A stretch of 64,000 nt of DNA from an uncultured Dehalococcoidia bacterium (lineage in GTDB: Bacteria; Chloroflexota; Dehalococcoidia; Lucifugimonadales; GCA-2712585), in contig OX638324.1 of NCBI GenBank assembly GCA_951812825.1, positions 568,459-632,458 on the forward strand, read 5' to 3'. The notes beneath the pieces were generated by a model that worked only from the letters and a program-made list of their open reading frames with translations, was not told the DNA's origin and did no database searches. The position numbers and the translations under genes were made by a program. Positions 1 through 17,697 of the stretch are shown in pieces (the stretch's first letter is position 1; each line of letters starts with the position of its first letter).

Positions 1-1010
1 CACACTTTAGGTAAACTACGCAATACAACAGTCTACCCAGACCACCACTCTCAATCAGGATGCCATTGTTTGCAAGGTTTTGTTTCCCCAATAGTACGTC
101 AATTAATTCTAGTGTTTGGGAAGTTTGCCTCGAAGCTGAGTCGCTGCTACTAGTACTAGAACCAATAACACTGCCGGTACCCGATATAAGGGCAATTGCA
201 TTCTTTGGGCCAGACAATACCACAGCTCTCGAGAACAGCGGTGGAATTGCGCTCCTGGTCTTCGGATAGTGAGACGGATTTGTTTGCATGGGATTATCCA
301 AGGCAAATACGTTCCAACTATTTCTTGTTTTGCATGCTATTCCGCTGATGGAGGGGGAGTCCTCTTGAGTTCCTACGCCTGTATTAGCAGGAAGGAACGC
401 ATTGCTACATCTACCCGAGAGCAAACCTGTCTCTCGAAAAAATTGCGTCCTCGAAATATTGAAATCCAGAAAGAAGTCTGAAGTGTCCGAGAGTCTTGGT
501 ATGTCTCCGTAATACGTCCATGTCTTTACAATATCAAAGACACTGGATTCTATGCTTTCCAGCTTCTCTTGAAGTTGGTGAAAGCAGCTAGCAAATTGCT
601 CTTGATACAATCCTAAGGGGAACTCTGGGTAGATAGAACCTACAAACTTGAGTGTGATGTCACGATGCAACAAAATGGAGATGCCATTCGCTGGATATCT
701 CACTTCTACGTTGGGACCGCTGGCCAACCATACTAGCAACAAAGCAGAATTCTTGCCTAATGGTCGTTGCAATAGTACTTCTGTAGCAGGTAAGCGTCCT
801 TCAAAGAGCCTAGCTAGTTCGGAGACAATCTGTAGCCTTGGCGGTTTTGCGGCCAAGAAGAATGTCAACTTAAGTATAGAGTCCATCCTTAGATTCAGCA
901 CTTTTTGCATTTCGGTGAGCATCTGAAGAAGTCCGGTTAAGTCATCTTTGGTACCTTCCAGAAGAATAAATCTAAAATGTGGGCCCTCATAATCCCCATA
1001 CTCACTCAAT
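1..1010 (-). CDS. Chorismatase-like protein with RidA/YjgF-like modules, 3' end outside window
   Basis: Reading the minus strand from a TTG at 1010 (preceded by a GGGGGG stretch) gives about 336 uninterrupted codons that run off the window start. Three RidA/YjgF-like modules can be seen. The first has a region like '...MDSILKLTFFLA...LPATEVLLQRPL'. The second has 'DIVKTWTYYGDIP' and 'LPANTGVG'. The third has 'FSRAVVL' and 'ALISGTGSVIG', followed by a Q-x-x-x-T-x-x-x-I helix. This pattern matches the chorismatase family (FkbO, Hyg5, XanB2), which hydrolyses chorismate to dihydroxycyclohexadiene-carboxylate or 3-/4-hydroxybenzoate. The last strands, where the family's catalytic Glu lies, are outside the window, so activity cannot be judged. 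Family similarity is by eye; the product is inferred. Confidence 0.6.
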
Positions 1011-1042
1011 GTAATTGCCCCCCACTTTGTGTTAGTTGCAAC

Positions 1043-1210
1043 CTAATGAAACACTGTGGATTTGGTGGATTTGACAAAATCAAGTCGAAACGAAATCAGT
1101 GTGCCGTGACTCTTCCACACGGTACCAGCATCGGCTCCTTTTCTCAACTCCTTGTACTCGTTCAGCACATATAAGGCAATGGCGTTGGGATCAAAGTTGG
1201 ACGGCACTAG
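1043..1210 (-). pseudogene. C-terminal remnant of an unrecognised gene
   Basis: A 55-codon stretch ends in TAG at 1043-1045, in the same frame as and just before the chorismatase-like gene. Its composition looks protein-coding ('NAIALYVLNEYKELRKG', 'GTLISFRLDFV'). Its 5' end stops exactly where a transposase remnant begins at 1211, so the rest of the gene was probably removed by that insertion. I do not recognise the family. It could also be the N-terminal part of the next gene separated by a nonsense codon. Confidence 0.4.
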
Positions 1211-1531
1211 TTAAGATACTCGGGGCGGAGTGCGTCCATCCAGTGTGTGGTGGGGTCGGAAAGTGTTGTAGACGCGCTCCCAATGCAGCAGGGCCCAGTT
1301 GAGGGTTGGGATGTCCAGATCGCCGTCATACATTGCGTAGAACTCCTCGGAGAGAGTGCACTGTACCCGCTCCGCGTGGCCGTTGAAATTCTGGGAGCAA
1401 TGCGGCAGTACAAAGAGCCTGATACCGAACTGCTAGCATACGATCTCGAAAGCAGCCCGGAAGTCGGAGTCTCCGTCCACCCGTATGGCTCTGATCAGGA
1501 AGGGAAACCGGCGCCGCATGGTGTCAAGGAA
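1211..1531 (-). pseudogene. Integrase-core transposase remnant (IS481/IS3-like C-terminus)
   Basis: The minus strand encodes the second half of an rve (DDE integrase) domain: 'RAIRVDGDSDFRAAFE', 'FGIRLFVLP', 'NGHAERVQ', 'LHWERVYNTFRPHHTLDGRTP', ending at TAA 1211-1213. A TAG interrupts the frame before 'QFGIRL', where a CAG Gln codon would fit, and another TAG precedes the fragment. The N-terminal half and terminal repeats are absent, so it cannot move. It abuts both the truncated gene on one side and the IS3 element on the other. Confidence 0.65.
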
Positions 1532-1652
1532 CTAGGAACACTCTGAACAACGTGATTCAGGGTGAGGTGGACCTGGAAAATCGGACAGGTAGCTAAGTGA
1601 GAGTCCTGCTCCTGGACTAGAGGTAGAAGAAGCTGTCGAGAAGGAGTGGGAG

Positions 1653-1937
1653 ATGAGAAAAGGAAGAAGGAAACAGAGCGCAGCCTTCAAGGCGAAGGTG
1701 GTCCTGGAGGCGGTGAGAGGGGATGAGACGGTGGCGGAGTTGGCGGCCCGGTACGAAGTGCACCCGGGGCAGATACAGGCATGGAAGCAGGCGCTGAAGG
1801 AAGGAGCGGCCGGGGTATTCAGCAACGGGCGGGACAGGAAGGCCAAGAGGGAGGAGGCGCTGATAGCGCGGCTGTATCAGGAGATAGGGCAGTTGAAGGT
1901 AGAGCGGGATTTCTTGGCGGAGAGGTCCGGTCCATGA
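1653..1937 (+). CDS. IS3-family transposase OrfA (helix-turn-helix)
   Basis: This 94-residue protein has the IS3/IS911 OrfA pattern: an N-terminal helix-turn-helix ('FKAKVVLEAVRGDETVAELAARYEVHPGQI' region, residues 11-40) and a C-terminal leucine-zipper-like helix ('ARLYQEIGQLKVERDFL'). OrfA binds the terminal repeats and, through programmed -1 frameshifting or coupled translation, works with OrfB. Its TGA overlaps the ATG of orfB (ATGA at 1934-1937). A purine-rich GGGAG sequence precedes the ATG. The frame is intact. Confidence 0.8.
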   Translation: MRKGRRKQSAAFKAKVVLEAVRGDETVAELAARYEVHPGQIQAWKQALKEGAAGVFSNGRDRKAKREEALIARLYQEIGQLKVERDFLAERSGP

Positions 1938-2732
1938 GTAGGGAGCGACGGCGGAAGATGGTGGACCGGGAACATCACACACTATCCATAGTGCGGCAGT
2001 GCGCCCTCCTTGGGGTGAGCAGATCCAGCCTCTACCATCGGCCCAAAGGTGCTTCTGCGAAGGAGTTGTCCCTGATGAAGGAGATGGGACCGTCAGTACC
2101 TTGTGACTCCCTTCTACGGATCGAGACGAATGAAGGCTGGACTGAACCAGCAAGGTATCCGGGTGAGCCGCAAACGGGTACAGAGGTTGATGGGACTCAT
2201 GGGGTTACAGACCCTCTATCGGCGCCCACCCACCAGCCGACGGGCGAAGGGGGACTGGATCTATCCCTATCTGTTGAGGGATATCAAGGTCACGAAGCCC
2301 AATCTGGTCTGGGTGGCGGACATCACCTACATCCCCATGGCTCGTGGCTTCCTATACCTGGTGGCGGTGATGGACTACTACAGCCGCTACCTGTTGGCTT
2401 GGCGATTGTCCAATACCCTGGAGGCCTACTTCTGCGTCGAGGCGTTGACGGATGCATTGGAGCAAGGGAAACCACAGATGTTCAACACCCACCAGGGCAG
2501 TCAGTTCACCAGCTTCGAGTGCACCCGGGTCCTACAGCAGCGTGGAGTGAAGATCAGCATGGACGGGAAGGGAAGGTACCAGGACAACATCCTGGCGGAG
2601 CGGCTGTGGAGGACGGTGAAGTACGAGGAGGTGCATCTGAAAGCCTATGCTAACGGCGCCATCGCCAGGAGGGAGCGTAGTGGCTACTTCCGCTTCTACA
2701 ACAACCAGAGGCCCCATCAGGCCCTGGGCTGA
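1934..2732 (+). pseudogene. IS3-family transposase OrfB, frameshifted and truncated
   Basis: The first part (from ATG 1934, 'MSRERRRKMVDREHH...LMKEM') and the second part ('RQYLVTPFYGSRRMKAGLNQQGIRVSRKRVQRLMGLMG', then the rve core 'VWVADITYIPM', 'HQGSQFTS', 'DNILAERLWRTVKYEEV') lie in different frames. One extra G near 2090 explains the shift. The second part then meets TGA at 2730-2732 in 'HQALG*RTPAALFHTDRT'. Beyond it the frame still encodes recognisable protein for about 50 codons, so the TGA looks like a nonsense mutation, possibly from CGA. Not functional as it stands. Confidence 0.8.
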
Positions 2733-2890
2733 CGCACCCCCGCGGCGCTGTTCCACACAGACCGGACGGCGCCGGAGAAGGAATCAAAAGCGAGGAGGTG
2801 CTCTATAGACCGGTGTTGGTATCATGTGCAGGAGCGACGGGACCCTCACTCTGTCCATCTAATGGGGTCTACCTCAGCATTCTGGACTCC

Positions 2891-3437
2891 GGCTTCAGCC
2901 GGAATGACTAACTCTTAGTAGATATTCTATGCTCCCACTCAGAAAGCCGTCCGCAATCTTCTTGGAATGCTTAACATGAAACATAGGTGAGGACTTATGA
3001 GACAGGCTCTATGGATAAGGTGGAGCGCACCAATACATAGGAATTCTACGGGATCTATGGCGGCGTTCTGGACATCCCTTACCTCAATTGAATCCCTACT
3101 CCAATGGGAGTATTCTAAGACAGCCTCCGTCCCCAACACTCACTGAACAGACGCACTAATGCCGAGTAGCTCAACCAATCCCAACCATGCTCGGGTCCAT
3201 TTCATCTGTCCAAATGAGTGCCTAACGAGTACAAGGGATTGATATAGCGAAAATAGAAATGTAGAATCAAAGTTACCGTGGCGGTGAGAATATCACATAT
3301 GGAATGTAGTTGGGCCATTTCGGTTGAAGCCTAATGATTACTACACACGGTGTAGGCTTGGCAGCTACCCCAAGATGCCGGGACTGCAGGCGTCCTTTGA
3401 AAACGAGAAAGCCCACAATACCTGAGCAAGTGCATAG
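2891..3437. other. Intergenic region between IS3 copy and S51 peptidase gene
   Basis: No convincing gene is visible. It begins with a small hairpin (CCGGCTTCAGCCGG) just right of the IS end. The remainder is AT-richer than the chromosomal backbone and carries only short, composition-poor open frames. A TAG directly precedes the ATG at 3438, which fixes the start of the next gene. Confidence 0.5.
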
Positions 3438-4253
3438 ATGGGAATAGTTGTTGGTATCGGAGGTGGTGAGTTTCGCCTTCGCGAGACGCTGGATATGGAC
3501 AAAGAGATAGTTCGGTTAACTGGAAAGTACAAGCCAACTGCTCTTTTCCTGCCAACGGCAAGTGGGGATTCCGAAAGTTATTCAAGAATGTTTATCGAGA
3601 CCTATGGAGAACTTCTTGGTTGCGCGACGAATGTGTTGCATATAGCAAATAAAACCGCCTCGCCGCGTGAAATCGAATCAGCCATACTGTCGAGTGATTT
3701 GGTTTACGTAGGCGGAGGGAATACCCTAAAAATGATGCGTCGCTGGCGAAGACTAGGATTGGATGCGGTGCTCAGAACGGCGTTCGATCAGGGGGTGTTG
3801 CTCTCTGGTATAAGTGCAGGAGCCATGTGCTGGTTTAAGGCTGGACATAGTGATTCGCTCCGCTTCTATAATTCTGACAATTGGCGCTTCATTGCCGTGG
3901 CCGGACTTGGCCTAATAGATGCCACTCTATGCCCACACTATGATCAACCGTGGAAAGGAGGGTCCAGAAAGGCAAGTTTTCAAACCATGGTCGCCCGTCG
4001 GGGAGGCACAGGTATAGCTCTTGACAATAACTGCGCTATTGTATTCAAAGATGGTAGATACAAGATAATCGCAACAACTCCAAGATCGTCCGCTTACATG
4101 GTTTTCAAGTCCAAGGGCAAGATGATTACATTCCCACTTCAGAAGGGGCGATGGTTTCAATGGCAGGAACCAAATAAGAAAGTTCAATTGAAGTCAAATT
4201 CTCCGGAACTCACGCCTCGACCGGATAAGAGTAGGTTGCTATATGAAGGATAA
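3438..4253 (+). CDS. Peptidase S51 family protein (dipeptidase E / cyanophycinase-like)
   Basis: This 271-residue protein has the class-I glutamine-amidotransferase-like fold of family S51. It opens with a beta-strand 'GIVVGIGGGEF', has a 'YVGGGNTLKMM' motif (residues 90-100) and the nucleophile elbow 'SGISAGAMCWF' with Ser126. A His follows in 'TLCPHYDQ' (His167). The length fits peptidase E-like members rather than cyanophycinases, which are longer. Family members cleave Asp-X or related isopeptide bonds; the substrate here is unknown. It overlaps the start of a carrier-protein gene by 11 bp, so the two were probably translated together. Placement inside a broken biosynthetic island suggests a role in maturing or releasing a small acylated or peptidic product, but that is inference. 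Confidence 0.75.
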   Translation: MGIVVGIGGGEFRLRETLDMDKEIVRLTGKYKPTALFLPTASGDSESYSRMFIETYGELLGCATNVLHIANKTASPREIESAILSSDLVYVGGGNTLKMMRRWRRLGLDAVLRTAFDQGVLLSGISAGAMCWFKAGHSDSLRFYNSDNWRFIAVAGLGLIDATLCPHYDQPWKGGSRKASFQTMVARRGGTGIALDNNCAIVFKDGRYKIIATTPRSSAYMVFKSKGKMITFPLQKGRWFQWQEPNKKVQLKSNSPELTPRPDKSRLLYEG

Positions 4254-4512
4254 GAACTATAACAACCTTAGGTCTAATGTGCTTTCAATCATATTGAAGC
4301 ACTCCATTTACGATGATCCAGCCTTACTTAAGCCGTCTGCATGATTGATTGAAGAGCTTGGAATGGACTCCTTTGCCTTCCTGGATATGTTTCGAGAATT
4401 GGAGGACCTACTACAGGAAGAATTCGACGATTCCACCCTCTCCTATGATCAATGGTCTACTGTTGATGCTGTCCTAGAGAAAACACTAAAGAGATCTGAT
4501 ATGGCTGATTAA
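4243..4512 (+). pseudogene. Acyl/peptidyl carrier protein with in-frame TGA
   Basis: An ATG at 4243 overlaps the end of the S51 gene. The frame to TAA at 4512 has 89 codons and reads as a carrier protein: helix I 'LRSNVLSIILKHSIYDD', then the phosphopantetheine site 'IEELGMDSFAFLDMF' with the attachment Ser in MDS, then an acidic helix and 'STVDAVLEKTL'. Codon 34 is TGA (4342-4344), between helix I and the DS motif, where carrier proteins often have a polar residue. An ancestral CGA would fit. No selenocysteine insertion hairpin is evident after it, and no good internal start exists before the DS motif. Probably a recent pseudogene; readthrough or a sequencing error is possible. Confidence 0.65.
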
Positions 4513-4637
4513 TTGAAGTATGCTCTGCTTTCTGTCCAGTCATGATGCGCCAAGAACGTTGTTATCCAACGAATATGTCGCCTCAAGTGAAAAGCGAAAA
4601 AGCAACCGTCTAGGTTGTCAAGAGGTAGCAAAGGTAG

Positions 4638-4830
4638 GCTGAGGTGGACCCCATTAGATGGACAGAGTGAGGGTAGACTTAAGTGAGGGTCCCGTCGCTC
4701 CTGCACATGATACCAACATCGGTCGTATAGAGTACCTCCTCTTCTTTGATTCCTTCTCCGACGCCGTACGGTCTGTGTGGAACACTTCTACATCCACAAG
4801 AGTTCTCCCAATGAGAACGCAGTTTGAGAA
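4638..4830 (-). mobile_element. Inverted 3'-end fragment of the IS3 element
   Basis: Read on the minus strand, this stretch matches the end of the IS3 copy at 2740-2878. It encodes 'EVFHTDRTASEKESKKRRYSI' and ends in the same terminal repeat (GCTGAGGTGGACC at 4638-4650). It also carries a short internal duplication (AGTGAGGGT..AAGTGAGGGT). The fragment stops at the IS21 left end at 4831, so IS21 probably inserted into this copy. Together with the first IS3 copy it brackets the S51 and carrier-protein genes in inverted orientation. Confidence 0.7.
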
Positions 4831-4946
4831 GGGCGGAGAGAAAATGTACCAAGGGGGCGGCTTGATCGTCTGATTGTGGCGGTCGAAAACTGTACCACCT
4901 CCCACCTTCCGATAGAGTCGAAGCAGACTCGAAGGAGGGTGACAGG

Positions 4947-6443
4947 ATGTATGTGGTGGATCTGTATTTTCGTGTGCGGAAGGCTTGTCTGGTGGAAGGG
5001 ATGAGCATGAGGGAAGCATCCCGGATGTTTGGAATTCACAGGGACACTGTGCGGAAGATGCTCTCCAACCCAACGCCACCCGGATACCGAAGGCAGCGCC
5101 CTGCCCGGCGTCCCAAGCTTGAGCTCTTCACCGGCATCATAGACCGGGTCCTTGAAGAGGACCTGAGCCTTCCCAGGAAGCAGCGTCACACGGTCAAGCG
5201 CATCTTCGAGCGGCTGAGAGAAGAACACGGCTTCGATGGCGGCTACACCATAGTCAAGGACTATGTGCGCAAGAGCAGGAGGCAGGGGCGAGAGATGTTC
5301 GTTCCCCTGGCCCATCCTACCGGACACGCGCAGTGCGACTTCGGACAGGCGTGGGCAGTCATAGGGGGCGAGAGGCGCAGGGCCCACTACTTTGTGATGT
5401 CCCTTCCGCACAGTGACGGAATCTTCGTGAAGGCGTATCCGGCGGAGACTACGGAGGCGTTCTGTGATGGCCACGTATCCGCGTTCGCCTACCTGGGCGG
5501 GGTTCCGCAGAGCATCCTGTACGACAACACGAAGCTGGCGGTGGCCAGGATACGGGGAGATGGACGCCGCAAGAGAACGAGGGTGTTCACGGAGCTTCAG
5601 TCCCACTACCTGTTCAGCGACAGGTTCGGCCGACCCGGCAAGGCCACAGACAAGGGGAATGTGGAGGGGATGGTGGGATACGTGAGGCGCAACTTCCTGG
5701 TGCCTGTGCCGAAGTTCGACAGCTTCAACGCGCTCAATGCCTACCTGGAGTCAAGATGTTTTGGCAGGAAGGAGGCGAAGCTGAGGGGGCACAGGGAGAG
5801 CATAGGAGAGCGAATGGAGCGAGACCTCGGCGCATTACTGCCCTTGCCCTCGGTTCCCTACGACCCGTGCGACAGGCACGCCACCCGGGTGAGTTCCCTG
5901 TCCCTGGTCCGATACCGGGCCGACTACTCGGTGCCGGTGGCCTACGGACACAGGGACGTGCTGGTCAGGGGCTATGTGGAGGAGGTGGTGATCAGTTGCG
6001 GTTCTGAGGTGATAGCCCGCCACAGGCGGTCCTACGAACGGGGGAACTTCGTCTTCGATCCCATCCACTATCTGCCACTTCTGGAGAAGAAGATAGCAGC
6101 CCTGGACCAGGCGGCGCCCCTGGCCGGGTGGAAGCTACCGGGAGAGTTCGACACCCTTCGCAGGCTGCTTGAGTACCGCATGGGCAGACGTGGAAAGAGG
6201 GAGTTCGTTCAGGTGTTGAGGTTGTTGGAGACCTTCTCACGGGAGGATGTGCATATGGCCGTGCGCGATGCCGTCAGGATGGGAGCGGCCGGCTTCGACG
6301 CTGTCAAGCATCTTGTGCTGTGCAACATCGAGGAACGGCCACCCAGGCTGGACCTCGACCTGTATCCCCACCTGCCCAGGGTGTGTGTGAGCACCACGTC
6401 GGCGGGAGACTATATGAAGCTGCTGAATGGGAGGACATCGTGA
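4947..6443 (+). CDS. istA: IS21-family transposase IstA
   Basis: This 498-residue protein has an N-terminal helix-turn-helix ('SMREASRMFGIHRDTVRKML', residues 20-39) and an rve catalytic core. Likely DDE residues are D131 ('AQCDFGQAW'), D193 ('ILYDNTKLA') and E240 ('KGNVEGMVGYV'). A Mu-transposase-like beta-barrel region follows. IstA cuts and joins the IS ends. A GGAGGGTGACAGG ribosome-binding region precedes the ATG. The stop TGA overlaps the GTG start of istB. The frame is intact. Confidence 0.9.
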   Translation: MYVVDLYFRVRKACLVEGMSMREASRMFGIHRDTVRKMLSNPTPPGYRRQRPARRPKLELFTGIIDRVLEEDLSLPRKQRHTVKRIFERLREEHGFDGGYTIVKDYVRKSRRQGREMFVPLAHPTGHAQCDFGQAWAVIGGERRRAHYFVMSLPHSDGIFVKAYPAETTEAFCDGHVSAFAYLGGVPQSILYDNTKLAVARIRGDGRRKRTRVFTELQSHYLFSDRFGRPGKATDKGNVEGMVGYVRRNFLVPVPKFDSFNALNAYLESRCFGRKEAKLRGHRESIGERMERDLGALLPLPSVPYDPCDRHATRVSSLSLVRYRADYSVPVAYGHRDVLVRGYVEEVVISCGSEVIARHRRSYERGNFVFDPIHYLPLLEKKIAALDQAAPLAGWKLPGEFDTLRRLLEYRMGRRGKREFVQVLRLLETFSREDVHMAVRDAVRMGAAGFDAVKHLVLCNIEERPPRLDLDLYPHLPRVCVSTTSAGDYMKLLNGRTS

Positions 6444-7228
6444 CTGACAGATCAACGCTGCTGCTGCAACACAACCTGAAGGAGTTGAAGCTGCCGACCT
6501 TCCTGAGGGAGTTCGGCAAGGTTGCGGCCCAGTGCGCCGCCGAAGGGGTGGACCATCCCGACTACCTGCTGAGGCTGTCTGAGCTTGAGCTCATAGACCG
6601 TCATCACCGCATGGTGGGGCGCAGGATCAAGGCCGCCCGCTTTCCGTCTATAAAGAGCCTGGACTCCTTCGACTTCAAGGCCATGCCGTCGGTGAACAGC
6701 CGGCTTGTGGCTCAACTCGCCCGCTGCGAGTACATAGAACGCCGCGAGAACGTCATCGCCATAGGCAACAGCGGTACCGGCAAGACCCACATAGCCCTGG
6801 GACTGGGACTCGCCGCCTGTCAGAGGGGACTCTCCGTCGGCTTCACCACGGCTGCCAGTCTGGTGAATGAGCTTGTGGAAGCCAGGGACGAGAAGCGCCT
6901 GCTGAACCTGCAGAAGAAGCTGTTCCGGCTGAAGCTGCTCATCGTAGACGAGCTCGGCTTCGTGCCCTTGTCTCAAACGGGAGCGGAACTGCTCTTTGAG
7001 ATCTTCAGCCAGCGATATGAATGAGGCTCCATACTCGTCACAACCAACCTGCCCTTCGACGAGTGGACCGAGATGTTCGGCTCCGAAAGACTCACCGGAG
7101 CCCTGCTGGACCGGCTCACTCACCACGTGCACATCCTGGAGATGAACGGCGAGAGCTACCGCCTCAAACAGAGCAGTCTAGACGCTGTGGCGGCGACTCC
7201 AGACCTACACTCGTCCCCCAGCCAATAG
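6440..7228 (+). pseudogene. istB: IS21-family helper ATPase IstB with in-frame TGA
   Basis: Starting at GTG 6440, overlapping the istA stop, the 262-codon frame matches IstB, the AAA+ helper ATPase. It has Walker A 'GNSGTGKTHIAL' and Walker B 'LLIVDELGF'. Codon 195 is TGA (7022-7024) in 'FSQRYE*GSILVTTNLPFDEW', where IstB proteins normally have Arg; CGA to TGA explains it. After the stop, the frame continues with 'ERLTGALLDRLTHHVHILEMNGESYRLK' to TAG at 7228. The truncated form lacks the sensor-2 region, so it is likely inactive. Confidence 0.85.
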
Positions 7229-7252
7229 CCGCTGCAGAGGACATTTTCGCTT

Positions 7253-7283
7253 GACATTTAATTGATGACATTTTTGCTGACCA
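7253..7283. repeat. Transposon-end-like repeat motif inside the IS21 right end
   Basis: TTGACATTTAATTGATGACATTTTTGCTGAC resembles the subterminal motifs of the ISNCY-like element just to the right (CAGCATAAATGTCA and CAGCAAGAATGTCA when read on the other strand). It may be an end of another copy, or a shared transposase-binding motif. Confidence 0.4.
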
Positions 7284-7330
7284 ATAGCGCCCAAGTGGTA
7301 CACTTTTACTCCGCCCCGCTTGTTGTTGCC

Positions 7331-8964
7331 CAGCATAAGTGTCAGTAGTTAACTGTTCAGCAAGAATGTCACATCATGGAGAATGTGACGTTGAATCAAA
7401 AGGAACAAGGGAGACTACAGGTACTCAACAGCTTGCTGGCGAAGCATATGACGATAGAGCAGGCATCTACGCTGATGGGGGTGAGCATACGTCAAGCCTG
7501 GCGCATTCTGGCGGCTTACAAGGAGGAGGGAGCAGCCGCCCTGGCTCACGGTCATCGAGGTCGGAGGGCGCCCAACGCGATATCGGAGGATGCGAAGGCT
7601 GTTGTGCTTTACCTGGCACAGACACGGTACGTGGGAACCAATCACACGCACATGAGCGAGTTGTTGAGAGAACACGAAGGCATAGACATTCCTCGCAGCA
7701 CGCTGCGGAGACTTTTGGTGAGCGTCGGTGAGAACAGCCCGCGCGGGAGACGTCCACCCAAGCATCGAAGTCGACGTCAGAGAATGCCTCGTGAGGGTAT
7801 GCTCATTCAGATAGACGGGAGCTACCATAGATGGCTTGGGGAAGATGGTCCACAGTTCACATTACTGCTGGCGGTGGATGATGCTACGGGCATCGTGGCT
7901 AGCGCCCTATTCTGTGGGCTGGAGAAGACCCGCAGCTACTTCCAGCTGCTTGAGGCCTTGATAAGGCGTTGCGGGTTGCCCCTCGCCCTTTATACGGACC
8001 GGCATGCCGTCTTCAAGTACACGCCATCCTCAGATAGTGCCGCCGCTCCTACTCAGTTCAGTCGAGCTATGGACGAGCTAGGGATACAGCTGATATTCGC
8101 TCGGTCGCCACAGGCTAAGGGACGAGTGGAACGCACAGCGGGAACACTCCAGGATAGGCTGGTTACGGAGCTTCGGCTTGCGGGGGCGATCACCATCGAT
8201 GATGCAAATCGCGTGCTAGAGGACTTTCTTCCACGCTTCAACAGCCGCTTCAAGGTGCCTTCCCAGGAGTCTGAAGCCGTCTACCGCCCAGTGGACGATG
8301 GAATCCGCTTGGAGAAGGTGCTGTGCTTCAAGTATCGCCGCAGAGTTGCCAGGGACAACACTGTCAGATATCGCCGCCGTACTCTGCAACTGCTGCCCGG
8401 TACGGACAGGACGAGCTACGCCGGTACAGTCGTAGATGTACTTGAGAGATTGGACGGACACCTGGAAGTGCAGCACCAAGGGTGGGACATCCCCTCTCAA
8501 GAGGCGCCGCCACATCCGAGTGTCCTTCGCGGCCTCGCCGGGAGAACCGCACACACAGTTGCCCCTTACCTGTCCTCTAAAGTCAACGGCAACGGTCTGG
8601 GTGGAAGATCGGTGACCAGGCTAGCGACGCCGGACCAGGTTCACCATATCGGAAAGCTCATTGCTGTCGCCGGTCCCAATGGCACCAGAAGAGTTCGCAA
8701 ATCTGTAGGCCCACCACGAAGAGATCCCACGCCACTGCAGACGGCCAGGTGGAAGGCGGTGCAAAAGGCTAAGCGAAAGGGCCTGTCTATTCGAGGAATA
8801 GCCCGGGAACTGGGCATTCATAGGGACACCGCGAAGAAGTACATGAACGCCAGGAGCCCGCCCATAACCGGCCATCAACCCAGATTCAAGAATTCGTGAC
8901 CTGTTATGATCAGAGACGAAGTCGGTGACATTTATGCTGGTCACTTTCACTGACATTTATCCTG
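7331..8964 (+). mobile_element. ISNCY-like insertion sequence
   Basis: The ends carry imperfect inverted repeats. The left reads CAGCATAAGTGTCAGT with an inner copy TTCAGCAAGAATGTCAC. The right read in reverse is CAGGATAAATGTCAGT with an inner copy CCAGCATAAATGTCAC. One intact transposase gene lies between them. The exact outer boundaries are uncertain by about ten bases. It sits immediately beside the IS21 right end and is followed by a stretch resembling another IS21 end. Confidence 0.65.
7376..8899 (+). CDS. ISNCY-like DDE transposase
   Basis: This 507-residue protein begins with helix-turn-helix repeats ('MTIEQASTLMGVSIRQAWRIL', residues 25-45). An rve core follows with likely catalytic D147 ('LIQIDGSYHRW'), D208 ('ALYTDRHAVF') and E252 ('AKGRVERTAG'). 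The C-terminus has an additional helix-turn-helix ('LSIRGIARELGIHRDTAKKYM'). This layout fits ISNCY-family transposases. The frame is complete, and it is the only transposase here without visible damage apart from istA and orfA, so this may be the most recent arrival. Confidence 0.8.
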   Translation: MENVTLNQKEQGRLQVLNSLLAKHMTIEQASTLMGVSIRQAWRILAAYKEEGAAALAHGHRGRRAPNAISEDAKAVVLYLAQTRYVGTNHTHMSELLREHEGIDIPRSTLRRLLVSVGENSPRGRRPPKHRSRRQRMPREGMLIQIDGSYHRWLGEDGPQFTLLLAVDDATGIVASALFCGLEKTRSYFQLLEALIRRCGLPLALYTDRHAVFKYTPSSDSAAAPTQFSRAMDELGIQLIFARSPQAKGRVERTAGTLQDRLVTELRLAGAITIDDANRVLEDFLPRFNSRFKVPSQESEAVYRPVDDGIRLEKVLCFKYRRRVARDNTVRYRRRTLQLLPGTDRTSYAGTVVDVLERLDGHLEVQHQGWDIPSQEAPPHPSVLRGLAGRTAHTVAPYLSSKVNGNGLGGRSVTRLATPDQVHHIGKLIAVAGPNGTRRVRKSVGPPRRDPTPLQTARWKAVQKAKRKGLSIRGIARELGIHRDTAKKYMNARSPPITGHQPRFKNS

Positions 8965-8965
8965 A

Positions 8966-9001
8966 GCGGCGACACCCCGCTGGTACGTCTTTGCTCCGCC
9001 C
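8966..9001. repeat. Second IS21-type terminal repeat, diverged
   Basis: CTGGTACGTCTTTGCTCCGCCC near 8980-9001 resembles the IS21 right end at 7295-7316 (TGGTACACTTTTACTCCGCCC). No IS21 coding sequence adjoins it, so it is probably a leftover end from another copy, separated by the ISNCY-like insertion. Confidence 0.5.
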
Positions 9002-9005
9002 TTGA

Positions 9006-9200
9006 CACGCAGTGGTGGAGCGCAGCTTCCGCACCGACGAAGAAGAGTTCTTCTTCTGGCTGGAAAGTCCTCCCCGTAACTATGGCCAACTGAACTCCTG
9101 GTACCAGCGCTTCCTCTACACCTACAATCAAATCCGCCCTCACATGGGCATCAATATGCTTACTCCCAAGGAGGCAATCTCCCTTTGCCTTAAGTCTTGA
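9006..9200 (+). pseudogene. C-terminal transposase remnant (integrase core)
   Basis: The frame encodes 'VVERSFRTDEEEFFFWL', then 'NSWYQRFLYTYNQIRPHMGINMLTPKEAI', the usual end of an IS3/IS481-type rve domain (the E of the DDE triad in 'VERSFRTD', then the 'YN..RPH..L...TP' tail). The upstream part is missing, replaced by the IS ends. It is not the same element as the remnant at 1211-1531. Confidence 0.65.
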
Positions 9201-9256
9201 GAGAATAAGGTGCTCAGGCGTGATACACTGCTTTGATACCAGCGATGGAGGACAAT

Positions 9257-9496
9257 ATGTCAGAGCGGATTAAGAGTGTGCAGGTCAAACGAACCAGCAG
9301 TCCCTACTACCATGAACACCTAGCGTTGATTGTGAATGCCGACATCGTTCGAGCCGGTGAAGCTGTCTCTGATACTAGTCAGCACAAACCCCACGGCAGC
9401 CCCGAGGCTATTCTTGAGTGCGGTTATCAGATAGTTCGTCAAATGGAGGAACTTCTCCGCTTAGCCCAAGGTGCAATTCTTTGTCGTCATGAGTAG
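9257..9496 (+). CDS. Small hypothetical protein
   Basis: A 79-residue frame starts at ATG 9257 with a good GGAGG at 9247-9251. An earlier alternative start exists near 9233. The protein is hydrophilic with a predicted C-terminal amphipathic helix ('AILECGYQIVRQMEELLRLAQGA'). I recognise no family. It lies alone between a transposase remnant and the BtrH-like operon on the opposite strand. The ribosome-binding site is the main support. Confidence 0.45.
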   Translation: MSERIKSVQVKRTSSPYYHEHLALIVNADIVRAGEAVSDTSQHKPHGSPEAILECGYQIVRQMEELLRLAQGAILCRHE

Positions 9497-9789
9497 GCTC
9501 GAATGCAATCCACACTAGATGTTCTTCATCGAAAGAGGTACATCGAACCTGAATCTCTGGTGATATCTCGGTTCATTCATAATTTCACTTGTTCAGTTTG
9601 GTATATAAATCCCCAAATAAACACTAAGGGCCAACGCTCTAGTAGAATGAGTCGTGGTCACGGACGAATGAATGACATTCCCCGATCATCGGTCAGGAAT
9701 TCCATGCAAAGGCGAGAGGAAATGAACCATTAGTCAACGGGTTATTTGATGAGCACATCGCTCCTCTCATGACAGAACAGGGTCCTCAC

Positions 9790-10821
9790 TTAGTCACCGA
9801 TCCCATTCTCCGGGACCATCTCAAGTGTTGCCAGGCCACTTTGGATTTCTTCCTCCCAATTTGCGATCATTTCGATTCTAGAACTCAAGAAATCTGGAGC
9901 CGGCACTATTTCTTCATATGACATCTTTAGACATGTCTTGGCTGCAATTAGCCATGACCTTTCGATTTTTGCGGCAAATGACACTAGCGTTTGAAGCTCT
10001 AATCTATTAGAAACATTGTAGGCAGTTTCAAAGACCGCTTTGCCGAGCCTTTTTTCGACCCATAAGCTGGAAAACTTGCGCCACATTTCCTGAAGGAGAC
10101 CATTGTCAATTCGCGACCGTAATGTTTCAGCAAAGTCGATATTAAATTCTCTAACTGCATCTGGGCCAACTAGTGACCCGCTCGGACCAATGGCACATAG
10201 GGAATTCAGTCTTGCGTTCTTGATATATTCGTCGACTTGATGTTCTACGGAATAGGCGGCCATGCAAGGCGTATCGATTGAGAGAAAACGATTTCTAACT
10301 GCGCCTCCAGGATTTAGTGGGAGGTGCTCATCAGCAGTGTCCTTTGACTCTCGAGCGGATAAATAGTCGGCAAGGGAAATCGGGCCAGCAAATGAAATTG
10401 CATTGAACCCATCCATCACCCAAACTTGGTCTCTGTCATCATAACCGTACACAAGCAAGGTGTGCAGAGTGTGAGTCTTAAGCGGCCAAAATGGCAAATA
10501 ATAAGGATCTACAAAAACTATTACAGGCTTACCCTCATCAAGCAGTCTACGCGTCTCATGCCATGCCTCAGCACTGTTATCAGTCTCAATTTCCTCAACT
10601 GAGAATCCAGACCTTCTAAGCCCATCGTATCTATCCAAATGGCTAGCTTCAATTGAGGAATGCATTACGCTGGAACCCTTCGAATAGTAAAACCCCCACT
10701 CTCGCGCAAGAACGGTATCAGCGGCGGGAACACCCATATAACTCAAGTAACTCCTTAAACAAACTAGAAGGCAATTATCACTTCCTGGGACCAGCGGTAC
10801 TCCTTGTAAAACATGCCTCAT
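9790..10821 (-). CDS. BtrH-like acyltransferase / papain-fold protein
   Basis: The 343-residue product resembles BtrH N-terminal-domain proteins, related to C39 papain-fold enzymes. In butirosin synthesis BtrH moves an acyl group from carrier protein BtrI to the aminoglycoside. Visible features are an N-terminal Cys in 'SDNCLLVCLRSYLSYMGV' (Cys17, with Cys21 close by), 'KPVIVFVDPYYLPFW', and His120 and Asp136 in 'HTLHTLLVYGYDD...VWVMDGF', a plausible Cys-His-Asp triad. I start at ATG 10821, with GGAG 9 bases upstream; GTG 10836 is an alternative. It is the last gene of a tight minus-strand operon behind the adenylation-carrier protein, which fits a role in off-loading its thioester. The acceptor is unknown. 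Confidence 0.65.
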   Translation of the reverse strand: MRHVLQGVPLVPGSDNCLLVCLRSYLSYMGVPAADTVLAREWGFYYSKGSSVMHSSIEASHLDRYDGLRRSGFSVEEIETDNSAEAWHETRRLLDEGKPVIVFVDPYYLPFWPLKTHTLHTLLVYGYDDRDQVWVMDGFNAISFAGPISLADYLSARESKDTADEHLPLNPGGAVRNRFLSIDTPCMAAYSVEHQVDEYIKNARLNSLCAIGPSGSLVGPDAVREFNIDFAETLRSRIDNGLLQEMWRKFSSLWVEKRLGKAVFETAYNVSNRLELQTLVSFAAKIERSWLIAAKTCLKMSYEEIVPAPDFLSSRIEMIANWEEEIQSGLATLEMVPENGIGD

Positions 10822-10842
10822 CCTATAAATCTCCACTACTGT

Positions 10843-11433
10843 TTAATTTGTTAAGTCCTGGTCTTGGATCGTAATGCTGAAAATGTGGGCGAACGGGTTA
10901 TCTCCAAAAGCTAATCCGCAAACAGCAATGTTAGAGTTGACTTGTACCTCTTGCAGCCAAATGGATCTAGGGAAGTTCAAGTCGCTGCCCTTATGGTGGC
11001 TATGTGAACATCTCAAGCCGTAGCTGGCTCCTAAAGTAGGTGATGAATTGAAACCGTCTGGGAATCCCAAGATCCTTATTTGTTTTGAACCATTGAGGAA
11101 ATGAATCTCGATTTCCTCCGAATAGTCGCCAAAATCTCCCGCACACAAGAAGAAAAGCTTGACTAGCTTCATTGGGGGGAACGAAACTACTTGGTTCGCC
11201 AAATAGAAGTTATTTGAGGCGCCATCGTCCTTTCTGGGAAATACAAATGGCACATCGGCCATGCATATGGTTTGCTCGGACTCAGGCAATTCTTCGGCTG
11301 GATATGCCCCCAGAAACCATTCATTTACGTCAGCCCGATTTGAGTCGTAGGAGATGGCATCGTTGTTGAACACTTCGTTAAGATGCATTATCCCAAAGGA
11401 CGCCCGGGCACTCAGTGGCACATTAAAAGGCAT
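10843..11433 (-). CDS. Beta-sandwich protein, hypothetical
   Basis: A 196-residue protein with no signal peptide. The pattern 'LNEVFNNDAISYDSNRADVNEW', 'YPAEELP', 'VPFVFPRKDDGASNN', 'KLVKLFFLCAG' and 'NPFAHIFSITI' resembles carbohydrate-binding-like beta-sandwich modules that are usually appended to extracellular glycoside hydrolases. Here it stands alone and appears cytosolic. It lies 19 bp after the adenylation gene and 6-21 bp before the BtrH-like gene, so the three are co-transcribed. A GAGAGGGAA ribosome-binding site precedes the ATG. A role in recognising a sugar acceptor is possible but unproven. Confidence 0.6.
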   Translation of the reverse strand: MPFNVPLSARASFGIMHLNEVFNNDAISYDSNRADVNEWFLGAYPAEELPESEQTICMADVPFVFPRKDDGASNNFYLANQVVSFPPMKLVKLFFLCAGDFGDYSEEIEIHFLNGSKQIRILGFPDGFNSSPTLGASYGLRCSHSHHKGSDLNFPRSIWLQEVQVNSNIAVCGLAFGDNPFAHIFSITIQDQDLTN

Positions 11434-11452
11434 GGGTTCCCTCTCCTAACCC

Positions 11453-13270
11453 CTAGCTCGGCCTTACTTGGGACATTCGCTCTTGGCAGATCTTTGCAAG
11501 TCTCTCGATCGGCTCAAGCATTATTTCGGCTGGTTGCAGGTGGCATCCAGTCTCCTTCTCCAAGCAAATCGAGGCTTCCATGCCCGAAAGGGAATCCCCC
11601 CCAAGGTCAAAGAAAGTTTCATTTGCGCTGACTTCCTCGACCCTCAGAATCGTCTGCCAGATTCGCCCAATGATTTTTTCCATCTCGGTCCCAGGCTCTC
11701 TAAAGGTCGTCTTCGAGACCTCCCGAATGTTATTGAGATTGGGGAGATTAATTCTATCGATCTTCCCGCTACTTGTTAGAGGAAGTGTTTCCATTTGGAC
11801 AAATATAGATGGAAGCATGTACTCTGGGAGCATAGGTCTAAGAAAGCTCCTTAATTCGTTGAGGTTGGGAGAGATTCCTTCTACAGGGACGATGTATGCA
11901 GATAGGCGTTTCTGTCCTGCCTGATCTTTTCGGATTATGATTGCCACTTGTTCTATGTCAGGGTGTCGCCCAATTGCTGCTTCAACTTCCTGGAGCTCGA
12001 TTCGATAGCCCCTTAGTTTAACTTCGCTATCAGCGCGTCCGATGTATTCGAGCGTGGCACCATCTTCCCCGTATCGAGCGAGGTCTCCCGTCTTGTACAT
12101 GAGACTGTAGTTATCTTTGCTTAGGCCATTAGGTAAGAACCTGCGACTTGTCAGGTCACTGTCAACGTATCCCGAAGCAATCTCACCTGCAACGTATACC
12201 TCTCCGATTTCTCCCCTTCTAGTGGGGTAAAAATAGGGATCAAGTAGATAGACAGCCATTCCCGGAATTCGTCTTCCAATGGGTGAATTGCCGTGCTCGT
12301 TTCGTTCGCATTGCCAATGTGTAACTAGAGGTGCTTCACTCATAGCATATATATTGTGCAACTCCGCTTTCAAGAAATCGAAAAATCGCGCGCGGAGGCC
12401 CTCCGAAATCTTATCTGCACCGCAGATGACGTGCCTCAAAGATTTACAAAGTGAAATTCTCGAGTCCTTCAACATAACATTTAAAACAGACGGCATGAGA
12501 GTAATTATGGTGACTTTCATTTTATGGATTAGCTCAATTTGATAGGATATATCTTGTTCCTTCCCAGAAGGTACTATTACTATGCAACCCCCAGACAAAA
12601 GTGGCCAAACAATCTGTCGCAATAAGCTCACGAAACCTATCGAAGTTTTGAACAAATGCCTGTCTTGATCGCTAAGACCAAATCTTTCATTCACCCAAGG
12701 CAAAGAATTAACGCACACGCCATGAGAGAGAATAACACCTTTTGGACGTCCAGTAGACCCCGAAGTGCCAAAAATGAATGCCAAGTCGTTTGCGCCAACA
12801 GAATTTATTGGTCTAAAATTATCAAATTGTCGATGGATGTGGAAATTCTTGTCCGCCGCTACAATCGGTACTCCCAAATAAGAAAGCATGCCCAAGAAAT
12901 GTGTTTGCGTCACAATAAGCTTCACATTAGAGTCTTCCAGCAGAGCTTTCAGCCGGTCAAAGGGTTCGGAAGGCTCAAAGGGAACACATACACAGCCTGC
13001 CTTTAGAATGCCCAAGACGCCTACTATTACGTCGATCGATCGATTCATGCTGAGGCCAACTCGATCCTGTCTGGCGACTCCCTTCCGCCTCAAATAGGTT
13101 GCCAGTTGGTTTGACCTTAGCGACAACTCTCTATAGCTGATGTTTTCGCCTTCATAAATGGCGGCTACTCCCTTAGGAGTCCTTGTTGCCTGAGCTTCGA
13201 AAAGTGTGCTTATGCAAATGTCCTTTTCGGTGAATCGTTTCGATGCGCAAATCACTTTGGTGCCTCTCAA
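11453..13270 (-). CDS. NRPS-like adenylation domain fused to peptidyl carrier protein
   Basis: The 605-residue protein is a stand-alone loading module. The adenylation core motifs are present: A3 'FGTSGSTGRPKG' (168-178), A5-like 'NIYAMSEAP', A7 'YKTGDLARY', A8 'RADSEVKLRGYRIE', and A10 'PLTSSGKIDR' with Lys503. The carrier domain has 'FFDLGGDSLSG' with Ser560. No condensation or thioesterase domain follows. In A4 the usual Asp that binds the alpha-amino group is replaced ('FKTSIGF', Lys208), which argues against a normal alpha-amino acid substrate. The start is TTG 13270 (AGGA 6 bp upstream) or GTG 13255 (GAGAGG upstream). First gene of the operon with the beta-sandwich and BtrH-like proteins. 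Confidence 0.85.
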   Translation of the reverse strand: MRGTKVICASKRFTEKDICISTLFEAQATRTPKGVAAIYEGENISYRELSLRSNQLATYLRRKGVARQDRVGLSMNRSIDVIVGVLGILKAGCVCVPFEPSEPFDRLKALLEDSNVKLIVTQTHFLGMLSYLGVPIVAADKNFHIHRQFDNFRPINSVGANDLAFIFGTSGSTGRPKGVILSHGVCVNSLPWVNERFGLSDQDRHLFKTSIGFVSLLRQIVWPLLSGGCIVIVPSGKEQDISYQIELIHKMKVTIITLMPSVLNVMLKDSRISLCKSLRHVICGADKISEGLRARFFDFLKAELHNIYAMSEAPLVTHWQCERNEHGNSPIGRRIPGMAVYLLDPYFYPTRRGEIGEVYVAGEIASGYVDSDLTSRRFLPNGLSKDNYSLMYKTGDLARYGEDGATLEYIGRADSEVKLRGYRIELQEVEAAIGRHPDIEQVAIIIRKDQAGQKRLSAYIVPVEGISPNLNELRSFLRPMLPEYMLPSIFVQMETLPLTSSGKIDRINLPNLNNIREVSKTTFREPGTEMEKIIGRIWQTILRVEEVSANETFFDLGGDSLSGMEASICLEKETGCHLQPAEIMLEPIERLAKICQERMSQVRPS

Positions 13271-13854
13271 ATGGTCCTAAGTTCGATTTGCAAGAACTGT
13301 AATTCAAGACACTCATCGAAGTCAACCAATCTAGGGGGTCCTATTTGTTGGGCAGGACTATGTTGGAGCTAAGTGAGGGACCGGTCACTCCGCCTGACTG
13401 GACTCGAACTCGTCAGAAGATAGTCGACATAGAAAGACGGCTTTTGTTTGAATATGCTAAAATTACAGTAAATAATATTGAAACTAACGGCTAGCCACGC
13501 CCTCCTATTATCCTATGACTGCTCCCCACTGCTCTAAGCCACCCGCACCAAAGACTCTTTTGCCCTCCATTCAGGTTCCAACTCTTGTCGGTGTAACACA
13601 TCAGGTGGCACACCTATAGAGGGTAGATAAGCATATGGGAGGCAGCCCGAATAGAATCAAACAACCATTATTCCAAACAGATCCTTTTGAAGCTACCTTT
13701 GTGGTACCGAATGTGGTACTTAAACCCAAATTACACTGATTTTATAGCTGAGTAAGAATCCAGGCTCGGCAGCCAACTCAACTCATCGCGCACATTCGCA
13801 GAGCTGCTCGTCCACTGTCTCCCCAGCCATCGAAAAACCCACCGAGAAGAACCT
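13271..13854. other. Intergenic boundary between accessory island and backbone
   Basis: No gene is visible in 584 bp. On the minus strand a TTGACT-18-TACAGT-like promoter candidate lies near 13310-13340, upstream of the adenylation gene. An IS3-type end remnant lies at about 13340-13395. The right-hand part, leading to the dehydrogenase gene, shows only weak tRNA-like fragments that do not fold properly. Composition shifts to GC-rich backbone at about 13.75 kb. Confidence 0.5.
13340..13395. repeat. IS3-type terminal remnant
   Basis: GGGCAGGACTATGTTGGAGCTAAGTGAGGGACCGGTCACTCC parallels the IS3 left end (GGACAGGTAGCTAAGTGAGAGTCC) and the inverted copy (GACTTAAGTGAGGGTCCCGTCGCTCC). No transposase sequence adjoins it. 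It marks the right edge of the accessory island. Confidence 0.45.
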
Positions 13855-14751
13855 ATGAAAATCGCATTCATCGGAACCGGCAACATCGGCAACCCCATGG
13901 CCCGCCACATCCTGGAGGCCGGTCACCAATTGACGGTCCACGACCTCAACCGTCAATCCACCATCAACCTTGAGGAGATGGGCGCAACCTTGGCTCCCAC
14001 GCCCCAGGCCGCTGCCGAAAAAAGCGAAATCATCCTCACCTCCCTCCCCGGCCCTCGCGAAGTTGAGGCCGTCGCCCTCGGCGACCAGTCCGTCCTGCAG
14101 GGTGCGTCGGAAGGCGCCATCTACGTAGACCTCTCAACCAGTTCTCCCAGCCTCGCCCGGCGCATCTACCAGGAATTCCAGGCCCGCGGCGTTGCCGCCC
14201 TCGACGCTCCCGTCAGCGGCGGCGTCCCGGGTGCGGAGGCCGCCACCCTGTCAATCATGGTCGGTGGTGACCGCAACGTTTTCGAAAAAGCATCTCCCGT
14301 CCTTCGCGCCATGGGCGACAAGCTCATCTACTGCGGGCCCCCGGGCTGCGGCATGGTATGCAAGATCTGCAACAACCTCGTCACCATGAGCCTCGCCGCC
14401 TTCCTCCCGGAAGTCCTCACCCTTGGCGTAGAGGCCGGCGTAGACCTCAAGACCGTCGCCAAGTCCATCACCAGCGGCTCCGGCAACAACTGGGTGCTGG
14501 AGGGCAAGTTCCCCACCACCCTGTTTCAGGGCAAGTTCGACCCCGGATTCACCCTGTATCTCGCAGCTAAGGACGTGCATCTCGCCACTGAGCTTGGCCG
14601 CGAGTTGGGACTGCCCATGGAAGCCTCTAACCTCTTCGCCCAGATATACCGCGCGGCCTTGCGCAATGGATTGGGCGACTTGGATGCCGACGCAGTGGCC
14701 CTCCTCTACGAAAGGCGCACCGGCACCAAGCTCCGCTTCACTGAAGGCTAG
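13855..14751 (+). CDS. NAD(P)-dependent beta-hydroxyacid dehydrogenase (GarR/HIBADH family)
   Basis: The 298-residue protein fits the 3-hydroxyisobutyrate / tartronate semialdehyde / 6-phosphogluconate dehydrogenase-like family. It begins with a Rossmann fingerprint 'IAFIGTGNIGNPMA', then 'YVDLSTSSP' and 'LDAPVSGGVPGAE' (substrate-binding motif). The catalytic helix 'GPPGCGMVCKICNN' supplies the family Lys and Asn. The all-alpha C-terminal domain has 'FDPGFTLYLAAKDVHLA', which matches the dimer-core signature. The exact substrate cannot be told from sequence. It converges with recF, the two coding regions overlapping by 4 bp at their 3' ends. Confidence 0.85.
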   Translation: MKIAFIGTGNIGNPMARHILEAGHQLTVHDLNRQSTINLEEMGATLAPTPQAAAEKSEIILTSLPGPREVEAVALGDQSVLQGASEGAIYVDLSTSSPSLARRIYQEFQARGVAALDAPVSGGVPGAEAATLSIMVGGDRNVFEKASPVLRAMGDKLIYCGPPGCGMVCKICNNLVTMSLAAFLPEVLTLGVEAGVDLKTVAKSITSGSGNNWVLEGKFPTTLFQGKFDPGFTLYLAAKDVHLATELGRELGLPMEASNLFAQIYRAALRNGLGDLDADAVALLYERRTGTKLRFTEG

Positions 14752-15914
14752 TCGTTGGCTCTTCTCAATTCGCCTTCGCACAGCCGCAATATGGACGCCC
14801 TCGACAGATACGCGTTGCTGAAGGGGTCCAGGTCTGTCGCCGTAATCACCGACTGACCGTAGGCAAGCACCCGCTCCAACACCTGCTCTCGCCGTTCTTC
14901 GTCCAACTCCGAGAGTATGTCGTCCAGCAACACCAAAGGCTCTCCCTTGTAGGCCGAAAGGTACTGGGCCTCGGAAAGCCGGAGAGTCAATGCCAGGGTG
15001 CGCGCTTGGCCTCGAGAGGAATATACTCCCATATCAACATCACCCACCAACAACTGAAAATCGTCCCGATGTGGCCCAAGGGCCGTAGACCCCAAACGGA
15101 TCTCCTGGTCCCTCAAGGCTTCCAAACCATTCAGAAATTCTGCGGCGCAGTCTCCGGCATCATCGGCCTGCGTGACGTTGGGCAAGTACTCCAGCCGCAG
15201 GTCCTCTGCATCGCCCGTCAGCTCCCGCTGGGTGGCCCTTGCGGTTTGCGCCAATTCAGTCATCGTATCTGTCCTTTGCTGGACAATCAGAGAACCGGCC
15301 TGCACAAGCTGCTCGTCCCAGAATGCAATCTCGCTTTCCCGTGCCCGCCCATCGCGAATCAGCTTCAACAGCTGATTGCGCTGGTGAAGCACCTTTTGAT
15401 AACGCTGTAGGGCGCGCAGGTACGCGGGACTCGACTGCGAAATTAGTATGTCCAGGTAGCGCCGTCGGACCGAAGGGGAACCCTGTACCAGCCGAATGTC
15501 CTCCGCCGAAAACAGCACCACGTTCAGAAGTCCCACCAACTCCGCTGCCGTCCTGCGAACGCCGTCTACCCGCACCTCCTTCCGCACCGAGTGGATGGGT
15601 GCGCCCTGGGAAGCTGCGCTCCGTGCCCTGAAATGCGTCTGATATCCGACGATGATCCGGGTGCGGCTTCCATCCAACTGCACCGTTCCATCCACGGCTG
15701 CCTGCTCCAGTGTAGACGCCGCATCCCAGTTCACCACCTCCCGCTCGTTCTCCGCACGGAAGGACTTTGCAATAGCCAGCAGGTAGATTGCTTCAAGGAT
15801 GGTTGTCTTGCCCTGGGCATTGGCCCCTACAATGAGGCTTGGGCCCTCAGGCACGTCAACTTCCAGCCTCCGGAAGGACCGAAAGTTCACCAGATTCAGA
15901 CGTGCCAGGTGCAT
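14748..15914 (-). CDS. recF: DNA replication and repair protein RecF
   Basis: The 388-residue protein has the SMC/ABC-type ATPase layout of RecF. Walker A is 'GANAQGKTTILE' near residues 31-42, followed by 'EAIYLLAIAKSFR'. The signature is 'YSSRGQARTLALTLRLSEA' and Walker B 'PLVLLDDILSELD'. RecF loads RecO/RecR at single-strand gaps. It is separated from dnaA/dnaN/gyrB, which usually neighbour it. It follows a hypothetical gene on the same strand by 53 bp. Confidence 0.95.
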   Translation of the reverse strand: MHLARLNLVNFRSFRRLEVDVPEGPSLIVGANAQGKTTILEAIYLLAIAKSFRAENEREVVNWDAASTLEQAAVDGTVQLDGSRTRIIVGYQTHFRARSAASQGAPIHSVRKEVRVDGVRRTAAELVGLLNVVLFSAEDIRLVQGSPSVRRRYLDILISQSSPAYLRALQRYQKVLHQRNQLLKLIRDGRARESEIAFWDEQLVQAGSLIVQQRTDTMTELAQTARATQRELTGDAEDLRLEYLPNVTQADDAGDCAAEFLNGLEALRDQEIRLGSTALGPHRDDFQLLVGDVDMGVYSSRGQARTLALTLRLSEAQYLSAYKGEPLVLLDDILSELDEERREQVLERVLAYGQSVITATDLDPFSNAYLSRASILRLCEGELRRAND

Positions 15915-17665: not shown

Positions 17666-17697
17666 CGCCTGGCTTGCCTCTAAGCGCCTTCGAAATA

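What the first reader, a model, noticed from the sequence alone, without database searches (positions are those of the whole stretch)
4243..4512. Carrier protein gene with TGA between helix I and the phosphopantetheine site
The frame is otherwise perfectly carrier-protein-like on both sides of the TGA, so the stop is recent, recoded or a sequencing error. If real, the S51 gene upstream has lost its translational partner.
Basis: seen in the sequence. Interest (0 to 1): 0.5.

Follow-up and report, generated by a model that had tools for sequence, protein, structure and literature searches.

The report
Carrier-protein gene broken by a stop
A small carrier-protein gene in a transposon-riddled, apparently acquired gene cluster is interrupted by one stop codon; it looks like an ordinary broken gene, and the signs of reprogrammed decoding that were looked for were not found.

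Summary
Confirmed: frame 4243-4512 (+) has a single in-frame TGA at 4342-4344. Read with X, it is a divergent phosphopantetheine carrier (Pfam PP-binding 22.5 bits, cut-off 20.8). The part after the stop is clearly coding; the 33 codons before it are only weakly so.

The genome encodes selenocysteine machinery (tRNA-Sec, SelB, SelA above cut-off), so recoding had to be tested. It is not supported: the hairpin after the TGA fails two of four bacterial SECIS rules, none of 29 usable carriers has Cys there, and TGA ends 8 of 31 other window genes.

The gene lies in an AT-rich island crowded with insertion sequences, some of which also carry in-frame stops, TGA and TAA. No orthologue was found in 399 other phylum genomes or 196 other relatives.

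Best reading: a real, probably recent nonsense mutation in a stand-alone carrier gene. Sequencing error is the main rival. The 'S51 partner' idea rests on an 11-nt overlap; no S51 relative examined has a recognisable carrier beside it. Ordinary.

The parts
4243..4341 (+). Carrier-protein frame, part before the stop (33 codons, helix I)
   Evidence: translation; weak coding bias
4342..4344 (+). In-frame TGA
4345..4512 (+). Carrier-protein frame, part after the stop (55 codons and TAA), with the D-S attachment motif
   Evidence: PP-binding 21.7 bits; coding bias
3438..4253 (+). Peptidase S51 gene, overlaps the carrier start by 11 nt
   Evidence: PF03575 158.6 bits; ORF
2749..2878 (.). Left inverted-repeat arm, at the end of an IS3-type element
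   Evidence: rve/HTH_21 of the element
4638..4784 (.). Right inverted-repeat arm, IS end remnant
4820..9013 (+). IS21-IS481-like module, second copy at L004:566-4759 (99.95%)
   Evidence: domains
7022..7024 (+). In-frame TGA inside IstB, also in the second copy
9790..10836 (-). BtrH-like protein gene of the cluster
   Evidence: PF14399 64.1 bits
10843..11433 (-). 196-aa protein, no family found
11453..13270 (-). Adenylation domain with a PP-binding domain
2..1009 (-). Part of a FkbO/Hyg5-like chorismatase gene that continues left of the window (L004:18323-19468)
   Evidence: TIGR04444 116.9 bits, below its cut-off of 325; 5ag3 E 5e-23

Best explanation
The gene encoded a small stand-alone phosphopantetheine carrier protein of an acquired secondary-metabolite cluster. 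A nonsense mutation has put a TGA between helix I and the attachment serine. Translation should end after 33 residues, before the serine, so no working carrier is made: a pseudogene. The cluster sits in an AT-rich island crowded with insertion sequences, so loss of one gene is unsurprising. Shown: frame, stop, domain, island context. Inferred: that the stop is real in the cells, that it abolishes function, and that it is young.
For: Frame and TGA; carrier domain across and after the stop; coding bias after the stop. TGA is a working stop: it ends 8 of 31 window ORFs that I picked as likely real genes, and the anthranilate-synthase gene of the cluster. Of 54 PF00550 places in 41 genomes, this is the only one with a stop inside. 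Non-IS stretches of 1-14000 are about 45-49% GC against 58-63% at 14001-20000. Other in-frame stops inside IS domains: IstB TGA 7022, IS3 TGA 2730, L004 TAA 5138, L004 TGA 15520. No match to the carrier in 399 other phylum genomes or 196 other relatives, two of them of the same genus. Two copies of a 4194-bp IS module differ at 2 bases with no gaps, so gross base error is not evident.
Against: No orthologue was found, so ancestral state and age are unknown and no rate test was possible. The other eight cluster frames have no internal stop (they were chosen as open frames), so the cluster is not visibly decayed. Coding bias is kept after the stop, so the mutation is young or the codon is decoded. 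The genome has Sec machinery. Sequencing error is not excluded; the two IS copies may have been polished together.
Confidence: 0.7

Rival explanations
1. Sequencing or assembly error: the gene is intact in the cells and one base was misread.
For: The eight other cluster frames are open and codon bias continues after the stop; no reads could be seen.
Against: The two copies of the 4194-bp IS module differ at 2 bases and no gaps, which speaks against a high error rate, unless copies were polished together. The frame is otherwise in register.
Confidence: 0.2
2. Selenocysteine recoding: the TGA is decoded as Sec, giving a seleno-carrier protein.
For: tRNA-Sec (75.7 bits, anticodon tca), SelB and SelA above cut-off. 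The hairpin after the TGA has a suitable spacing (18 nt) and energy (-7.9 kcal/mol). PMC13188914 (passage) says that some putative bacterial SECIS elements do not fit the model.
Against: Upper stem 3 bp instead of 4-16 and no G in the first two loop bases, AUGGAC; 22 of 200 shuffles fold as well, and longer stretches are less remarkable (73, 53 and 165 of 200). 0 of 29 usable carriers have Cys at the position. No redox role is known for this position (recalled). Rfam finds nothing at 4200-4600.
Confidence: 0.03
3. Leaky read-through, or re-initiation at the TTG directly after the TGA, makes some functional carrier.
For: TTG follows the TGA directly; 4 of the 5 distinct in-frame stops seen inside domains in the scanned part of the island are TGA.
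Against: A re-initiated product lacks helix I. The fifth stop is TAA. The only tca anticodon among the tRNAs read was tRNA-Sec (by coordinates 5 of the 46 places were not read). TGA is used as a normal stop.
Confidence: 0.05

Closest known systems
Stand-alone acyl/peptidyl carrier proteins (Pfam PF00550 PP-binding)
   Same: Size, helix I, G-x-D-S attachment motif; best solved relatives are acyl carrier proteins (6lvt, 2l0q) and a D-alanyl carrier protein (9xgl), at E 0.03-0.06 only
   Different: Divergent (22.5 bits) and interrupted by TGA
Ordinary nonsense pseudogenes in IS-rich islands
   Same: In-frame stop in a coding-like frame, among IS elements that also carry in-frame stops
   Different: The other cluster frames are open; no intact orthologue was found to prove the loss
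Bacterial selenoprotein genes (UGA-Sec with bSECIS)
   Same: In-frame UGA in a genome with SelA, SelB and tRNA-Sec
   Different: No standard bSECIS, no Cys in the carriers compared
Butirosin-type carrier/BtrH systems (recalled; only the BtrH_N match comes)
   Same: A carrier and a BtrH-like protein in one cluster
   Different: S51 peptidase, adenylation-PCP, anthranilate synthase and chorismatase-like genes; that these parts work together is inference

Membership tests
PP-binding carrier protein (PF00550) | Profile match above the curated cut-off | tested here: met
   22.5 bits with the stop as X, 21.7 for the C part alone; cut-off 20.8
PP-binding carrier protein (PF00550) | Attachment serine in a D-S motif | tested here: met
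   LIEELGMDSF after the stop, aligned with the D-S of other carriers
PP-binding carrier protein (PF00550) | One uninterrupted domain | tested here: not met
   TGA between helix I and the attachment site; hence an interrupted carrier gene, not a working carrier
PP-binding carrier protein (PF00550) | Four-helix carrier fold | tested here: inconclusive
   Single-sequence model, mean pLDDT 63.5; no fold match at E <= 0.001
Bacterial selenoprotein | Sec machinery in the genome | tested here: met
   SelD was not searched
Bacterial selenoprotein | bSECIS: 3-9 nt loop with 4-16 bp upper stem; G in the first two loop bases; 16-37 nt spacing; MFE <= -7.5 (PMC13188914, passage) | tested here: not met
   Spacing and energy met; stem of 3 bp and loop AUGGAC fail
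Bacterial selenoprotein | Cys at the Sec position in homologues (PMC1088965, passage) | tested here: not met
   0 of 29 Cys: S 24, T 4, N 1 by alignment; S 25, T, A, N, E 1 each by fixed distance; two mis-extracted rows dropped. These are carriers of the class, not orthologues
Pseudogene | Disabling change relative to intact orthologues | tested here: inconclusive
   Stop present, but no orthologue found to compare
Pseudogene | No full-length protein made | not testable with these tools
   needs reads, peptides or a reporter

The most novel reading that the evidence does not exclude
The TGA is decoded, at least in part: a carrier protein whose full-length form needs UGA read-through (as selenocysteine through a non-standard SECIS, or by regulated leakiness), so that loading of the cluster's product is throttled at translation. 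Sec machinery is present, and 4 of the 5 distinct in-frame stops seen inside domains in the scanned part of this island are TGA.
Probability: 0.04. Interest if true: 0.8.

Novelty: new member of a known kind. Interest (0 to 1): 0.15.

Why it matters
If the stop is real, the cluster lacks its stand-alone carrier and probably makes no product, or uses the carrier domain of the adenylation protein; anyone mining the cluster should know this. If the TGA were decoded, it would be a selenium-containing or read-through-controlled carrier protein, of which I know no example (recalled; one search found one paper holding its four terms, a Plasmodium transcription study, and the passages of PMC13188914 seen came with 0 occurrences of 'carrier protein').

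Tried and rejected
Selenocysteine recoding: machinery present, but signal and homologue tests fail. As a positive control I looked at the genome's two PF00384 (molybdopterin) places; neither holds an internal stop, so no selenoprotein of this genome was found to compare. SelD was not searched.

Code change (TGA as sense): rejected; TGA ends 8 of 31 window ORFs that I picked as likely genes, and the internal stops in IS domains include a TAA.

Suppressor tRNA: ARAGORN was run on 38 loci, from 30 of the 46 tRNA-family places and 8 of the 15 places of the tRNA-Sec model. The only tca anticodon was tRNA-Sec. By coordinates 5 of the 46 places were not read.

Orthologues of the carrier: none in 399 other phylum genomes, 196 other relatives or 72,556 plasmid records. 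The BtrH-like neighbour likewise: none in 349 other phylum genomes or the plasmids. The one genome-contig scan went to the S51 gene and gave one relative, so the carrier was not looked for there.

S51-carrier pairing: the motif scan found the window's own carrier and, among the S51 relatives, one chance-like match in L024 in a 296-aa frame. The profile scan found no carrier near S51 relatives, but it also missed this window's own carrier in six-frame mode, so it is insensitive. 32 plasmid records hold S51 relatives below 60% identity; their neighbourhoods were not read.

Structure model from one sequence with the TGA read as Cys: low confidence, no use.

Papers: (S51 with carrier) 0 papers; (BtrH, BtrG) 0; one irrelevant; and search listings; PMC1088965 and PMC13188914 seen as passages.

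Full report
OBSERVATION. Window 4243-4512 (+) is a frame of 33 codons, one TGA (4342-4344), 55 codons and a TAA. Its ATG overlaps the end of the S51 peptidase gene 3438-4253 by 11 nt. With X at the stop the protein matches Pfam PP-binding at 22.5 bits (cut-off 20.8); the piece after the stop alone gives 21.7. A scan of the whole 2.47-Mb genome with PF00550 gives three places: the adenylation-PCP protein, one intact small carrier at C1:1314947, and this one, flagged with one TGA. Codon bias learnt from eight cluster genes is clear after the stop (0.243 bits per codon, next best frame 0.121; 0 of 2000 shuffles as high) and weak before it (0.079, two other frames at 0.071 and 0.076; 88 of 2000 shuffles as high); two non-coding control stretches gave 1089 and 207 of 2000. 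The N part alone is not recognisable by profile (-1.8 bits). The best solved-structure alignment, though weak (6lvt, residues 11-76, E 0.034), runs through both halves.

SURROUNDINGS. Positions 1-14000 alternate between AT-rich genes (about 45-49% GC) and GC-richer IS elements; 14001-20000 is 58-63% GC. The AT-rich genes, here and in L004 to the left, look like a secondary-metabolite cluster: DHA2-type efflux transporter (TIGR00711 just above cut-off), PhyH dioxygenase, fused anthranilate synthase (TIGR01815 above cut-off), FkbO/Hyg5-like chorismatase (TIGR04444 below its cut-off), S51 peptidase, this carrier, adenylation-PCP and a BtrH-like protein, plus a 196-aa protein of no known family. 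That they form one pathway is inference. The eight frames other than the carrier have no internal stop, but they were chosen as open frames. The S51-carrier piece lies between inverted arms (2749-2878 and 4638-4784), the left one at the end of an IS3-type element, and next to an IS21-IS481-like module whose second copy (L004:566-4759) is 99.95% identical over 4194 bp (2 mismatches, 0 gaps). In-frame stops inside IS domains: IstB TGA 7022 (both copies), IS3 TGA 2730 near the end of its domain, L004 IS110 TAA 5138 and TGA 15520; most other IS domain matches listed had none. Only the plus strand of window 1-9452 and parts of L004 (plus 4700-14302, minus 7600-17400) were scanned this way.

RELATIVES. 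The carrier has no match in 399 other genomes of the phylum, 196 other relatives, of which two are of the same genus and four of the same family, or 72,556 plasmid records. The S51 protein has relatives in 14 of 392 other class genomes (16 places, best 50% identity) and on one archaeal MAG contig. No recognisable carrier lies beside these 17 places in the DNA held, mostly 1.5 kb on each side, apart from one chance-like motif match. The pair is not a conserved unit as far as tested.

RECODING TEST. The genome has tRNA-Sec (75.7 bits, cut-off 47; ARAGORN anticodon tca), SelB (349.7, cut-off 242.25) and SelA (550, cut-off 267.9). In the 14 control genomes these models passed their cut-offs in 5, 2 and 1. 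The bSECIS rules come from a passage of PMC13188914, which adds that some putative elements do not fit. Here the stem is 3 bp, the loop AUGGAC, spacing 18 nt, MFE -7.9: two rules met, two not. Of 1890 TGAs on both strands of the window, 144 pass all rules in a 40-nt fold and 289 in a 48-nt fold; this one passes in neither. 22 of 200 shuffles fold as well at 40 nt, 73, 53 and 165 of 200 for the other three stretches. PMC1088965 (passage) required Cys homologues of a candidate. Of 54 PF00550 places in 41 genomes, 31 with loci were used, two of them from this genome; two rows (L080, L087) were mis-extracted and dropped. In the other 29 the residue is Ser 24, Thr 4, Asn 1 by alignment, or Ser 25 and Thr, Ala, Asn, Glu 1 each by fixed distance from the serine; Cys 0 either way. 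By eye most are fatty-acid-type carriers, not orthologues. TGA ends 8 of 31 window ORFs picked as likely genes, and the anthranilate-synthase gene. Rfam finds nothing at 4200-4600.

MECHANISM AND VERDICT. The best-supported account is a real, fairly young nonsense mutation in a divergent stand-alone carrier gene of an acquired, IS-bombarded cluster; translation should stop after 33 residues, before the attachment serine. Sequencing error is the main doubt and needs reads. A decoded TGA is possible only through a non-standard SECIS or leakiness; I give it about 4%.

LIMITS. No orthologue, hence no rate test. No reads. The structure model was uninformative.

Noticed in passing
window 6398-7180, and the second copy in L004: IstB of the IS21 element is interrupted by an in-frame TGA (7022-7024) in both near-identical copies; the domain match continues in the same frame across it.
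   Followed up: partly
window 45261-46097: Ribosomal protein S17 gene with a long acidic C-terminal tail made of about 11 tandem 27-nt units (45738-46036).
   Followed up: partly
window 41302-42132: Ribosomal protein L4 gene with an acidic C-terminal extension of about 74 residues beyond the Pfam match.
   Followed up: no
L029 (C1:530001-550000), 5999-15174: Left of the island: AIPR protein, Z1-domain protein, HATPase_c_3 protein and C-5 cytosine DNA methylase close together, possibly a phage-defence operon (Pfam; role inferred).
   Followed up: partly
own genome C1:1743062-1743154, 1942814-1944667, 2188473-2189807: tRNA-Sec, SelB and SelA genes: this genome can probably make selenoproteins, but none was identified here.
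   Followed up: partly
window 10843-11433: 196-aa protein between the BtrH-like and adenylation-PCP genes with no Pfam or NCBIfam match.
   Followed up: no
window 4820-9013 and L004 566-4759: Directly repeated 4.2-kb IS21-IS481-like module, 99.95% identical, bracketing about 18.5 kb that holds the S51-carrier piece and part of the cluster.
   Followed up: partly
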